NCBI RefSeq assembly: GCF_032108445.1
Contig: NZ_CP134876.1
Coordinates: forward strand, 2,604,001-2,668,000
DNA from: Micromonospora halotolerans
GTDB lineage: Bacteria > Actinomycetota > Actinomycetes > Mycobacteriales > Micromonosporaceae
Direction: 5' to 3'
DNA length: 64,000 bases
The translations under genes were made by a program, and so were the position numbers. Positions 23,894-27,770 of the stretch are shown here, piece by piece. How positions within the stretch are numbered: position 1 is the first letter of the stretch; every line of letters begins with the position of its first letter. Below the pieces are notes generated by a model. It was given only the letters and a program-made list of their open reading frames with translations, had not been told where the DNA came from and ran no database searches.

Positions 23894-24688
23894 TCAGGGC
23901 TGGCGGACGCAGCAGCCCTGGCAGATCTTCGGCCGGGGCAGGGTGAAGGCCAGGCAGCAGGTGCGCCGCTGCACGGTGGGCTCGCCGGCCGGGCCGGGCA
24001 CCAGCTCGACCAGGTCGCTCAGGTCGAGCGCGTCGAGCAGCGTGCCGATGGTCGCGGTGGAGGAGCCGGGCAGCGCGTCCGAGGCCCGCAGGATGCCGTG
24101 CGCGATGCCGGAGGCGACCGAGCCGAGCAGGGTACGGGTGCCGATCCGGACCTCGCCCTGGATGGCCGTGATCAGCGGGGCGAAGTGAGCGTCGAGCAGC
24201 GTGGCGCGCAGCGCGTCGAGAAGCGCGGCCTCGTCGGCGACCACCCGGACCCCCGGGTCGCCGGCCAGCGCCAGCGGGTCACCGGGGAGCACCGCGACCG
24301 TGGTGGAGCTGCGCAGGCCGAGGGTGAGCAGCTGGTGGTGGTCCTCGAAGTGGACCAGCACATCGGCCGGGTCGAGCAGCGGGACCCGCCGAGCCGAGGC
24401 CCAGCCGAGCACGGCCGGCAGCGCGGTCCAGTAGCTGTAGGACTTCCAGGCCAGCGCGGCGCAGGCGTGCGGGGTGCCGCCCCAGCGCCGACCGGCCGCC
24501 CGGAGGAACTCGGGGAGCAGGGTGCCGTCGACCAGCCGGGTGGCCGGGATCCAGCGGGGCGCGCCGTCGGAGACCAGCAGGCCCGGCGCGAGACCGGGCA
24601 GGTCGTCGGTGCCGAACATGGCCCGCAGGGTCGCCGTGACCGGGGCGAACGGGGTGGCGACGTTCCGCCCCGGCATCACCGCAGTCAC
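23894..24688 (-). CDS. FhuF-like ferric siderophore reductase ((2Fe-2S)-binding)
   Basis: 264 residues. The C-terminus has the FhuF-type cysteine set: CC at 244-245 followed by C256 and C259 (TCCLAF ... KICQGCCV), which bind a [2Fe-2S] cluster used to reduce ferric siderophores in the cytoplasm. The N-terminal part has HFEDHHQLL and Trp-rich YSYWTALPAVLGW. GTG start at 24688, AGGGGA 7 bases upstream. A palindrome like an IdeR/DmdR iron box lies 56-69 bp upstream, which fits iron regulation. Confidence 0.82.
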   Translation of the reverse strand: MTAVMPGRNVATPFAPVTATLRAMFGTDDLPGLAPGLLVSDGAPRWIPATRLVDGTLLPEFLRAAGRRWGGTPHACAALAWKSYSYWTALPAVLGWASARRVPLLDPADVLVHFEDHHQLLTLGLRSSTTVAVLPGDPLALAGDPGVRVVADEAALLDALRATLLDAHFAPLITAIQGEVRIGTRTLLGSVASGIAHGILRASDALPGSSTATIGTLLDALDLSDLVELVPGPAGEPTVQRRTCCLAFTLPRPKICQGCCVRQP

Positions 24689-24743: not shown

Positions 24744-24757
24744 TAAGGCTAGCCTAA
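24744..24757. promoter_or_regulatory. Iron-box-like palindrome (IdeR/DmdR type)
   Basis: TAAGGCTAGCCTAA is palindromic apart from one pair. Its right half matches the actinobacterial iron box half CTAACCTAA closely; the left half is weaker. It lies upstream of the FhuF-like gene and could cover its promoter. Confidence 0.45.
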
Positions 24758-24998
24758 CCACAGCTCCCGGTGGAGGGGAAGTGGTCCGGTGGGCTCAGGG
24801 GAGAGGTCCCGGTCACTCCGTCGCCCATCGCGTACTACCCGGCGACGTGGGCGGAAAACGCCGCCGAGCGGGGCGGCGGGCCGCGCAAGCATCGACGGAT
24901 GCCGCTGAATTGTCAAGGCGAGTGTCGAATACGAGGCAGTTTCCGTACACGTTCGGCCACTAAACGTGAAAATGGTCCTCCCGCGTACGAGGAAGCTG

Positions 24999-26528
24999 AT
25001 GACGACCTCACCGATCGAGCGTGCCGCCGACTCGTTCGCGGCCGAACTCGCCCGGCACCGCACTGGCCGAGGGCTGTCCAAGAAGCAGTTGGCGACGCTG
25101 ATGGGCTTCGACCCGTCGTACGTCAGCCACGTCGAGGGGCGCCGGCACCGGCCCACCGAGGACTTCGCCCGCCGCGCCGAGGCCGTGCTGGAAGCCAGCG
25201 GCGCGATCTGGCAGCGCTTCCGGGAGTACGACGAGCTGCGGCACAGCCGCTCCGGCGGTCCGTACCGGGACCCGCCCGTGCCCGGCCAGTGGCTACCGCC
25301 CGGCACCGGGCTGGTGGTCGAGCGCGAGACCGCCACCCTCACCCACAGCGAGGACGGCTACCACTGCGCCATCCGGCGCGAGCTGTACAACGCGGGCACC
25401 GAGCCGGTCACCCGCTACCTGGTCCGGGTCGCCGTCGACCGCTACCCCGACGACCCCGGCCGCTCCAACCGGCACCACCGCGAGCACCCGCTGACCTTCG
25501 CCGAGCTGCAACTCAGCGCCTACCGGGACGACGGGGGCGCGCGGGAGCCGATGCACTGGCGGGCCAAGCACGACCGCGACGCGTTCAAGGAGATCTGGCT
25601 GCTCTTCGAGAACGACGAGGGGCGCTTCCCGCTCTACCCCGGCGACCGGGTCACCATCGAGTACGCGTACCGGGTCGGGCGGGACAAGTGGGGCCCGTGG
25701 TTCCAGCGGGCCGTACGCCTGCCCACCCGGCACCTCGGCGTCCGCCTCGACCTCCCCGCCGACCTCGACCCCAAGGTGTGGGGTGCGGAGACCTCCCTCT
25801 CCGCCGAGGAGGGGCCGCTGCGTACCCCGATCCAGCGCGCCGACGAGGGCGGCCGTGCGATCTTCGAATGGGCGACCGACGACCCGCCGCTGAACGCCCG
25901 CTACCGGATGCAGTGGCGGTTCCGCAGCCAGCCGCCGGACGTCGAGCCCGAAGGGCCGGCCCCCGACACCCGGATCCGGGCCAGCGACCGGATGCGCGCC
26001 ATCGGCATCGTGCAGCGCGGCGACGACCTGCTCCGGCAGCAGGCCCGACCGTTCGACCTGCCGCGCGAGGAACAACTCGCCCGGGACGTGGTCGACCGGC
26101 TCTCCGGCCTGCTGGTCCGCCTCGACGAGCTGCACCCCTTCAGCAAGGGCGTGGGCATCGCCGCACCGCAGCTCGGGCTCGGCTGGGCCGCCGCCCTGGT
26201 CCGCCCCGCCGACCGGGCCGCCGAACCCGTCGTGCTGCTCAACCCCCGGGTGGTGGACAGCTCCCCCGACACCGACGAGCAGTACGAGGGGTGCCTCTCC
26301 TTCTTCGACCACCGGGGCCTGGTGCCCCGGCCGCTGCGGATCGACGTCGAGCACGCCCAGTGGGACGGCAGCCGCGTCATCACCTCCTTCGAGTACGCGA
26401 TGGCGCGGCTGGTCGCCCACGAGATCGACCACCTGGAGGGCCGCCTCTACGCCGACCGGATGGCCCCCGGCGTGCCGCTGGTGCCCGTCGAGGAGTACCG
26501 GGAGAGCGGCAACCCCTGGCGCTACTGA
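24999..26528 (+). CDS. XRE-type HTH regulator fused to a complete peptide deformylase domain
   Basis: 509 residues from the ATG at 24999 (GAGGAAG upstream). Residues about 10-65 form an XRE helix-turn-helix (GLSKKQLATLMGFDPSYVSHVEGRRHRP). Residues about 90-310 are a beta-rich region with many aromatic residues (EIWLLFENDEGRFPLYPGD, YAYRVGRDKWGPWFQ) that I do not recognise. Residues about 335-505 are a peptide deformylase with all three motifs: GVGIAAPQLG (384-393, Gln391), EGCLS (430-434, metal ligand Cys432) and HEIDH (474-478, metal ligands His474/His478 and catalytic Glu475). The deformylase therefore looks active. Normal deformylases are free-standing enzymes of about 170-190 residues. 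The fusion suggests a sensor or effector acting on N-formyl-methionine peptides, but function is unknown. Confidence 0.85.
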   Translation: MTTSPIERAADSFAAELARHRTGRGLSKKQLATLMGFDPSYVSHVEGRRHRPTEDFARRAEAVLEASGAIWQRFREYDELRHSRSGGPYRDPPVPGQWLPPGTGLVVERETATLTHSEDGYHCAIRRELYNAGTEPVTRYLVRVAVDRYPDDPGRSNRHHREHPLTFAELQLSAYRDDGGAREPMHWRAKHDRDAFKEIWLLFENDEGRFPLYPGDRVTIEYAYRVGRDKWGPWFQRAVRLPTRHLGVRLDLPADLDPKVWGAETSLSAEEGPLRTPIQRADEGGRAIFEWATDDPPLNARYRMQWRFRSQPPDVEPEGPAPDTRIRASDRMRAIGIVQRGDDLLRQQARPFDLPREEQLARDVVDRLSGLLVRLDELHPFSKGVGIAAPQLGLGWAAALVRPADRAAEPVVLLNPRVVDSSPDTDEQYEGCLSFFDHRGLVPRPLRIDVEHAQWDGSRVITSFEYAMARLVAHEIDHLEGRLYADRMAPGVPLVPVEEYRESGNPWRY

Positions 26529-26648: not shown

Positions 26649-27770
26649 CTACAGGTTGCCGAAGGTGTCGTAGCGGATGTTGTCCGGCGGCACGTCGTCC
26701 GCGGCCAGCGCGCGCAGGGTCGCCCGGACCATCGCTGCCGAGCCGGAGACGTAGCAGTCGTGCGTGGTCCACGGGCCGTACCGGGTGACCACCTCCGAGA
26801 TGTCCCCCAGTTCGCCGTCGAAGTCCGGGTCGTCGCTGCACGCCGTGGTCACCGACAGCCACGGATGGACGGCCACCAGCTTCTCCAGGCCGGGCAGCCC
26901 GTACAGATCCGCGGGCCGGCGGGCCCCGTAGAAGACGTGCACCCAGCGGGTGCGGTTGACCCGGGTCAGCTCCTCCACCAGCGCCTTGATCGGGGCCAGC
27001 CCGACCCCGCCCGCCACGCAGAGGATGTCCCGGGTGGAGGCCCGGTCCAGGGTCATCGAGCCCATCGGCGCGGCCACCCGCAGCAGGTCACCCGGCCTGG
27101 TCCGGCGGACCAGCGCCCCGGACACCCAGCCCGCCGCCCCGGCCGGCGTCCGCACGTGGAACTCCAGCACGTTGTCCTCGTTCGGGGCGTTCGCCACCGA
27201 GTACGTCCGCCACACCCGCGGGTGGTGGCGGGGCGCCTCGACGCTCACGTACTGGCCGGCCTGCCAGGTCATCGGATGCTGGAGGGCGCGGACGGTCAGC
27301 ACCGCGGTGTCCGGGCCGTGCCGCTCGTGCGTGAGCACCTCGGCGTGCCAGAACGGCGGGTTGTCGTCGGCCGCCGCGCCGGCCAGCATCCGCTCGCTGA
27401 TGCTCGCGTACGCCTCCCGCCACGCCTGGTCGTACTCCAGGTTCCAGCCGTCGCCGGCGGTGCTGCGCAGCGCGTCCAGCAGGGCGACACCCATGCTCTC
27501 GTAGTGGCTCGCCTCGACGTGGAACTTCCGGTGGTCCCGGCCCAGCGCGCGCAGGTACTCGTCGAAGCTCTCCGGGTCGTCCACCGTCTGGGTGGCGGTG
27601 ACGATCGCCTCCAGGATCCGGTCGCCCTGGCCGTTCATCTGCACCGGGAAGAGCATGCGCAGCGCCGGGTCGAGGAGGAACAGCCGGGCGTAGAAGTGAC
27701 CGCTGAGCCGCTCCCGGTCCTCCTCGACCAGGGTCCAGCTCTCCTTCAGCAACCGCGCGAAGTTCTCCAC
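26649..27770 (-). CDS. Flavohemoglobin-type globin/ferredoxin-NAD(P) reductase
   Basis: 373 residues. An N-terminal globin domain (residues 1-135, proximal His about H80 in GRDHRKFHV) is joined to an FAD domain (RTYSVANAPNEDNVLEFHVR, the RxYS flavin motif) and an NAD(P) domain (CVAGGVGLAPIKALVEEL, CYVSGSAAMV). Flavohemoglobins detoxify nitric oxide to nitrate using NAD(P)H and oxygen. The distal-pocket residues differ from E. coli Hmp in places, as in the actinobacterial oxygen-binding group, so activity on NO is likely but not certain. GTG start at 27770 with AAGGAG upstream. It diverges from a CPBP protease, with a perfect 17-bp dyad between them. Confidence 0.88.
   Translation of the reverse strand: MENFARLLKESWTLVEEDRERLSGHFYARLFLLDPALRMLFPVQMNGQGDRILEAIVTATQTVDDPESFDEYLRALGRDHRKFHVEASHYESMGVALLDALRSTAGDGWNLEYDQAWREAYASISERMLAGAAADDNPPFWHAEVLTHERHGPDTAVLTVRALQHPMTWQAGQYVSVEAPRHHPRVWRTYSVANAPNEDNVLEFHVRTPAGAAGWVSGALVRRTRPGDLLRVAAPMGSMTLDRASTRDILCVAGGVGLAPIKALVEELTRVNRTRWVHVFYGARRPADLYGLPGLEKLVAVHPWLSVTTACSDDPDFDGELGDISEVVTRYGPWTTHDCYVSGSAAMVRATLRALAADDVPPDNIRYDTFGNL

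What the first reader, a model, noticed from the sequence alone, without database searches (positions are those of the whole stretch)
24999..26528. HTH regulator fused to a complete, apparently active peptide deformylase
Seen: an XRE helix-turn-helix, a 220-residue beta-rich region I cannot assign, and a deformylase with all three catalytic motifs (GVGIAAPQLG, EGCLS, HEIDH) in one 509-residue chain. Known: deformylases are single-domain housekeeping enzymes removing the formyl group from nascent proteins. Inference: the fusion may sense or process N-formyl peptides and regulate transcription, or it may be a stress or defence effector.
Basis: partly seen in the sequence, partly recalled or inferred. 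Interest (0 to 1): 0.75.

Follow-up and report, generated by a model that had tools for sequence, protein, structure and literature searches.

The report
DNA-binding regulator fused to a deformylase
A soil-bacterium protein joins a DNA-binding part, an unnamed mostly-beta domain and a complete formyl-removing enzyme in one chain; the combination is widespread in actinobacteria, is often carried on mobile DNA, and looks like an enzyme that controls its own gene.

Summary
Window 24999-26528 (+) encodes a 509-aa chain: XRE helix-turn-helix (HTH, 13-71), an unnamed domain (MID, ~100-315) and a peptide deformylase (PDF, 337-490) with all catalytic motifs. The fusion is real: 16 of 16 same-genus and at least 97 of 150 family genomes have it; dN/dS is low in all three domains. 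In streptomycetes HTH-MID and PDF also occur as two genes overlapping by 4 bp, or fused at the same locus. These PDFs form a clade apart from this genome's other three, one of which precedes an fmt-like gene. Fusions also sit on plasmids and integrative elements. MID folds like Ost1 and the N-terminal domain of M1 aminopeptidases and also occurs without PDF. A 40-bp motif occurs 12 times in 121 streptomycete genomes, each time just upstream of a MID gene, but not upstream of the window gene. Best reading: a self-regulating accessory deformylase; the signal (formyl peptide or PDF inhibitor) is inferred. None of the papers my searches listed describes it.

The parts
24999..26528 (+). HTH-MID-PDF fusion gene, 509 aa
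   Evidence: orthologues
25035..25211 (+). XRE-type helix-turn-helix (HTH_31), residues 13-71
   Evidence: Pfam E 8e-13; median dN/dS 0.07 for residues 1-80
25296..25943 (+). MID: unnamed mostly-beta domain, residues 100-315
26007..26468 (+). peptide deformylase domain, residues 337-490
26148..26171 (+). PDF motif 1, GVGIAAPQ
26286..26300 (+). PDF motif 2, EGCLS (Cys432, metal ligand by family knowledge)
26418..26432 (+). PDF motif 3, HEIDH (His474, Glu475, His478)
24910..24931 (+). conserved upstream element TTGTCAAG-N5-TGTCG-N2-TA, 68-89 bp before the ATG; candidate operator or promoter element
   Evidence: looser form TGTCAA[GC]-N4-7-TGTC[GA] in 27 of 30 family upstream regions, 0.005 expected after mononucleotide shuffling (the regions are related by descent); only match with up to 1 mismatch in the own genome
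24745..24759 (.). iron-box-like palindrome AAGGCTAGCCTAACC, probably belonging to the divergent fhuF-like gene (IdeR/DtxR box recalled, not tested)
   Evidence: identical in 13 of 13 aligned same-genus regions
23894..24676 (-). divergent neighbour, FhuF-like (Pfam match below the cut-off, 21.3 against 25.2 bits)
26649..27770 (-). convergent neighbour, flavohaemoglobin-like (globin, FAD and NAD domains)

Best explanation
The protein is an accessory peptide deformylase built into a transcription factor. The HTH binds an operator upstream of its own gene, often between it and a divergently transcribed operon. MID links the DNA-binding end to the enzyme and probably binds or positions a peptide or partner. 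The PDF domain is a catalytically competent metal-dependent deformylase whose state (occupied by a formyl peptide or a natural PDF inhibitor, or with its metal lost) changes DNA binding. The cell or mobile element would then make more of this second deformylase, and switch the linked operon, when the housekeeping PDF is overloaded or inhibited. Shown: the three domains, the clade, the conserved motifs, operon/fusion equivalence, mobile carriage and conserved upstream motifs. Inferred: DNA binding at those motifs, enzymatic activity, the signal and the direction of regulation.
For: Fusion conserved and constrained: median dN/dS 0.07 / 0.24 / 0.23 for HTH / MID / PDF against 0.36 and 0.69 in the linkers. 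Strict catalytic motifs in 120 of 121 fusions. The same pair as two genes overlapping by 4 bp; a PDF of this clade at 17 of 19 streptomycete MID loci. Separate clade, support 99/98, with a def-fmt-like pair elsewhere (fmt by reading), so accessory. HTH-MID genes have a divergent 5' neighbour in 40 of 46 called cases against 180 of 612 other genes of the same loci; 11 of 16 hand-grouped contexts, p 0.0013. A 40-bp motif shared by unrelated loci; with up to 3 mismatches it is found 12 times in 121 genomes, each time upstream of a MID gene, and never with the reversed control. PDF inhibitors are made by actinomycetes and a cluster-borne PDF gives resistance (PMC12130866, passages); an accessory PDF lowers actinonin susceptibility (PMC12690207, abstract, passages and sections 5 and 29).
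Against: No experiment. HTH-MID exists without a PDF domain, at the same fhuF-like locus in some relatives and in L116 with the same motif, so the HTH-MID unit does not need PDF. The fused PDF has Arg where Vibrio Def2 has the actinonin-resistance Tyr (alignment), so that known resistance signature is absent. The streptomycete motif is not found upstream of the window gene (z -0.6) although the HTHs are 58-65% identical, and 7 of the 19 MID-bearing streptomycete genomes have no hit at 3 mismatches. The regions compared are partly related by descent, so motif conservation is not fully independent evidence.
Confidence: 0.42

Rival explanations
1. Repressor plus metallo-hydrolase switch of mobile elements, working like ImmR/ImmA: HTH-MID represses, and the PDF domain (also an HExxH metalloenzyme) cleaves, demodifies or destabilises it in response to a signal. 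Chromosomal copies are domesticated.
For: Divergent, regulator-like position in 11 of 12 IMG/VR element loci; two-gene and fused versions; ImmR/ImmA is a tandem of a repressor and a metallopeptidase that cleaves it (PMC8960796, abstract).
Against: No ImmA/IrrE-type domain among the Pfam matches up to E 1; PDFs are not known peptidases (recalled); deformylase motifs are strictly kept; the Micromonosporaceae copies lie at a stable chromosomal locus.
Confidence: 0.18
2. Mobile-element cargo that gives tolerance to PDF inhibitors: a spare deformylase whose HTH only autoregulates its level, without sensing by the PDF domain.
For: Carriage on Streptomyces, Nonomuraea and Nocardia plasmids and integrative elements; accessory PDFs on mobile elements reduce actinonin susceptibility (PMC12690207).
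Against: Arg kept at the residue-97 position, though LydA resistance does not use known mutations either (PMC12130866, passage); in Micromonosporaceae it is a chromosomal gene at one conserved locus; some relatives have HTH-MID without PDF there.
Confidence: 0.18
3. Stress or anti-phage conflict module: MID is a sensor or adaptor with exchangeable enzymes (PDF, inositol monophosphatase, phosphoesterase) and exchangeable N-terminal parts (HTH, STAND-like/TPR-like); the PDF acts as effector on nascent proteins.
For: Partner swapping; mobile carriage; STAND NTPases are typical of conflict systems (recalled).
Against: PADLOC gives only HTH-level matches; 'deformylase' does not occur in the main text of the conflict-system paper PMC7159879; conserved linkage and low dN/dS in Micromonosporaceae.
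Confidence: 0.12
4. Toxin-antitoxin pair: HTH-MID antitoxin and PDF toxin, often fused.
For: HTH gene first, 4-bp overlap, mobile carriage.
Against: PDF is an essential housekeeping activity, not a known toxin (recalled); HTH-MID also stands alone and fusion is the commoner state in Micromonosporaceae.
Confidence: 0.04

Closest known systems
Peptide deformylase (PF01327)
   Different: C-terminal domain of a DNA-binding chain; clade apart from this genome's other three PDFs and 15 phylum PDFs in the tree
Trigger enzymes such as BirA and PutA (recalled)
   Same: Enzyme and DNA-binding domain in one chain, likely autoregulation
   Different: I know of none with a deformylase (one search listed one fungal-genome paper, not opened); dual function unproven here
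ImmR/ImmA of ICEBs1 (PMC8960796, abstract)
   Same: XRE-like repressor paired with a metalloenzyme, on integrative elements
   Different: Enzyme is a deformylase, not an ImmA-type peptidase; extra MID domain
Accessory PDFs on plasmids and integrons (PMC12690207)
   Same: Extra PDF, often on mobile DNA
   Different: Fused to HTH-MID; Arg instead of Tyr at the residue-97 position; 'helix-turn-helix' and 'transcriptional regulator' have 0 hits in that paper's main text
Def-Fmt fusion of Exiguobacterium (PMC12690207, passage)
   Same: Natural PDF fusion
   Different: Partner is the formyltransferase, not a regulator
Ost1/ribophorin I, 3kd4 and the M1 aminopeptidase N-terminal domain (for MID)
   Same: Predicted MID fold
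   Different: 4-13% identity; MID sits between HTH and PDF, presumably in the cytoplasm

Membership tests
Peptide deformylase | motifs GxGxAxxQ, EGCxS, HExDH | tested here: met
   present in the window protein; strict in 120 of 121 fusions; the exception, P0088, has EACLS
Peptide deformylase | PDF fold | tested here: met
Peptide deformylase | deformylates formyl-Met peptides | not testable with these tools
   needs an assay
XRE/HTH_31 regulator | HTH domain over the Pfam cut-off | tested here: met
   48.9 bits against 27
XRE/HTH_31 regulator | binds an operator at its own promoter | tested here: inconclusive
   conserved upstream motifs; no binding data; the streptomycete motif is absent at the window gene
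Trigger enzyme | enzyme and DNA-binding domain in one chain | tested here: met
Trigger enzyme | enzyme state controls DNA binding | not testable with these tools
   needs binding assays with ligand
ImmR/ImmA module | ImmA/IrrE-type metallopeptidase domain | tested here: not met
   Pfam scan up to E 1 lists only Pep_deformylase, HTH_31 and HTH_3
Known anti-phage defence system | match to a described defence protein outside the HTH | tested here: not met
   PADLOC-DB 2.0.0 matches up to E 1 all fall within residues 11-67
M1 aminopeptidase N-terminal domain superfamily (for MID) | fold | tested here: met
M1 aminopeptidase N-terminal domain superfamily (for MID) | sequence homology | tested here: inconclusive
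   no M1 match up to E 5; DUF3857 weakly in 6 of 42 members, best E 0.019
Toxin-antitoxin | toxic partner neutralised by the HTH protein | not testable with these tools
   needs an expression test

The most novel reading that the evidence does not exclude
A new kind of one-component switch in which a deformylase is the sensor: HTH-MID-PDF reads the load of N-formylated nascent chains or the presence of PDF inhibitors through its own active site and converts it into transcription. MID would be a transferable peptide-handling module, with a fold known from aminopeptidases, that actinobacteria combine with HTH or STAND-like inputs and PDF or phosphatase outputs.
Probability: 0.25. Interest if true: 0.8.

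Novelty: new variant of a known kind. Interest (0 to 1): 0.6.

Why it matters
Most named entries in the listing call these proteins 'peptide deformylase', so a deformylase that is also a regulator has been hidden among housekeeping enzymes. If the reading is right, it is a direct genetic readout of N-terminal formylation or of PDF inhibition; it may explain part of the high PDF number in Micromonosporaceae (Dactylosporangium vinaceum holds the record with seven, PMC12690207 section 5; its membership of the family is recalled); and it gives a ready promoter-reporter for finding PDF inhibitors.

Tried and rejected
Artefactual fusion: rejected. Genes without HTH: my gene caller gave L112, L114 and L115 as lacking HTH and cut L121 short; the open frames of L112, L114 and L115 contain it and the region before L121 reads as HTH. 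So 'MID-PDF without HTH' was dropped. In the divergence count these four are outside the 46; with them it would be 42 of 50, since L112 and L114 follow a GntR gene in the same direction. L143 gave no called MID gene and is not in that count.

The 22-bp family element: (up to 1 mismatch) matched 87 of 150 genomes, and the reversed control also gave hits in many. Of its 26 exact matches, 22 lie within 150 bp upstream of an HTH-MID gene by the coordinates; G480, G444 and G464 lie by unrelated genes and G508 is about 1.46 kb away. The pattern came from members of this family.

Neighbours fhuF/hmp as functional partners: kept as linkage only, since streptomycete and plasmid loci have other neighbours. 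Dynein-lid, SecM, EAD1 and DUF4424 matches to MID and designed Ig proteins: taken as chance. Phages: no record among 50,697 has a place covering 80% of the query; 40 records match, and all 15 rows shown cover the PDF end only. Plasmids: 796 records match, most of them by the PDF part only in other genera; 13 cover at least 80%. PDF tree: the tool warns of long branches and that the join of L120 with 18 other rows may be false.

Literature: searches (nine of ten) in open-licence PMC papers. Three found no paper. In 16, 98 and 102 only 20 of 515, 8 of 34 and 10 of 30 papers were listed. None of the listed titles and abstract starts describes an HTH-deformylase fusion; the two papers and the one were not opened.

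Full report

The fusion is real and constrained. All 120 homologues listed have both Pfam domains. In 150 genomes of the family, 89 have a single full-length match and 8 more have both halves in one open frame, by my hand count of the listing; that is at least 97 of 150, because the listing was cut, and three of the 89 hold internal stops. All 16 genomes of the same genus are among them. In a sample of 396 genomes of the phylum three had a full-length match, but only three candidates per genome were scored there. Among 14 same-genus sequences (91 pairs; 90 for the first linker), median dN/dS is 0.07 for HTH, 0.24 for MID, 0.23 for PDF, and 0.36 and 0.69 for the two linkers. Strict catalytic motifs are kept in 120 of 121 fusions. 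Across 75 clade PDF rows from fetched loci (repeats of one gene included), HExDH is kept in 75 and EGCxS in 73, both exceptions being one gene of G204 with EGCLA; four divergent rows (L074, L080, L120, L125) miss my pattern for the first motif.

It is an accessory enzyme. The genome has four PF01327 loci. One of the others is directly followed by an fmt-like gene, the usual housekeeping pair (L001; fmt assigned by reading, not by a profile). In a 61-row tree of rows that I chose, the fused and separate PDFs of this kind form one clade (43 rows, support 99/98), apart from the other three of this genome and 15 PDFs of the phylum sample.

The parts belong together. In Streptomycetaceae 19 of 121 genomes have a MID match; 17 of these 19 loci also hold a PDF of this clade, 7 in one frame with HTH-MID and 10 as a separate frame, four of the latter with a broken or fragmentary HTH-MID (L099, L100, L102, L103). 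Several two-gene versions overlap by exactly 4 bp (L107, L111, L113; L080; plasmid NZ_CP109098.1); L108 has a short gap instead. L110 has the fused form at the same glycosyltransferase locus. In G434 and G456 the two genes are a few kb apart on opposite strands. Some Micromonosporaceae have HTH-MID without a PDF domain at the fhuF-like locus (L117-L119, L122-L124; L078); in L080 and L125 a divergent PDF of the clade lies nearby. MID also occurs in large proteins with weak, sub-threshold STAND and TPR matches, twice ending in an inositol monophosphatase, and behind a metallophosphoesterase. So MID is a module with exchangeable inputs and outputs. The own genome has only this one MID.

Mobile carriage. 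On plasmids, 13 records cover at least 80% of the query, in Streptomyces, Nonomuraea and Nocardia; two of them (H5, H6) are two-gene versions. All 12 IMG/VR loci found with MID hold a full fusion. Their neighbours (DUF2637 and DUF3987 matches, SSB) suggest integrative plasmid-like elements rather than typical phages; this is my reading of four informative hits. L109, L112, L114 and L115 lie among genes read as integrase, excisionase-like HTH, DUF3987 or GntR proteins.

Regulatory evidence. Among 46 HTH-MID genes with a called 5' neighbour, 40 are divergent, against 180 of 612 other genes in the same loci; grouped by context it is 11 of 16, p 0.0013. The loci were chosen by me, the grouping was done by hand, and many loci are related. 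Upstream alignments of two unrelated contexts, the glycosyltransferase locus (7 sequences) and the elements (10 sequences), share a motif GTGACnGnA-N3-TGA-N7-TCACTCACnGnTCAnTCA, its TCACTCAC half starting 35-98 bp before the called start. A matrix from these 17 also scores high in L109, L116 (a gene without PDF), L132 and L141 (z 7.5-14.8 against 60 shuffles). L138, L144, L081 and one gene of L080 are weaker (z 2.9-4.6), L121 reached z 3.7 inside HTH-coding sequence, and the remaining upstream regions, the window's included, are negative. In eight streptomycete genomes the 18-bp core occurs once each, always at the known place; chance alone would give few extra exact copies. A scan of 121 Streptomycetaceae genomes with up to 3 mismatches gave 12 hits in 12 genomes and none with the reversed control; by coordinates all 12 lie just upstream of a MID gene. 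Five of the 12 are training loci and seven are new, though related; 7 of the 19 MID genomes have no hit, and none of the 102 genomes without MID has one. The window's own group has another conserved element, TTGTCAAG-N5-TGTCG, 68-89 bp upstream, in looser form in 27 of 30 upstream regions and only once in the own genome. Whether it is an operator or a promoter part is open.

How it most likely works. The simplest model that uses all parts is an autoregulated accessory deformylase in which MID and PDF inform the HTH. The ecological reason could be natural PDF inhibitors: actinonin and lydiamycin come from actinomycetes, and uncharacterised clusters of the same clade are reported in Micromonospora and Actinoplanes (PMC12130866, passages). 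The accessory Vibrio PDF owes its reduced actinonin susceptibility to Tyr instead of Arg97 (PMC12690207, passages). The window protein has Arg (R439) at the aligned position, so it may be sensitive, which suits a sensor better than a resistant decoy; this last step is inference. Rivals are an ImmR/ImmA-like switch, plain resistance cargo, a conflict effector and a toxin-antitoxin pair.

Limits. No binding, activity or phenotype data exist here. Gene starts in unannotated genomes come from my own simple caller, which erred in at least four loci. The names of the G genomes are unknown; 'streptomycete' for the family of G023 is my reading of named protein hits and of the matching plasmids. The papers were seen as passages and abstracts and, for PMC12690207, sections 5 and 29, not in full.

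Noticed in passing
L076:4444-7200 and L076:9477-11828 (G400; P0242 and P0244 name Catenuloplanes japonicus): MID at the C-terminal side of large proteins with weak STAND and TPR matches, one ending in an inositol monophosphatase domain; MID has no Pfam model.
   Followed up: partly
P0246: Metallophosphoesterase-MID protein of 560 aa, a further partner of the domain.
   Followed up: partly
L064:2010-10571 (L065:6883-15229 looks alike): HTH-MID gene in a row with an FtsK-domain protein and two proteins without Pfam match, with the clade PDF about 3 kb away on the other strand.
   Followed up: no
streptomycete fusions L087, L092, L093, L094, L096, L097: PDF motif 2 reads EGCWS instead of EGCLS, a change next to the metal-ligand Cys that may alter specificity.
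   Followed up: no
window 24745-24759: Iron-box-like palindrome identical in 13 of 13 same-genus upstream regions beside the fhuF-like gene.
   Followed up: partly
L091 (G564): One HTH-MID gene with two PDFs of the same clade beside it.
   Followed up: no
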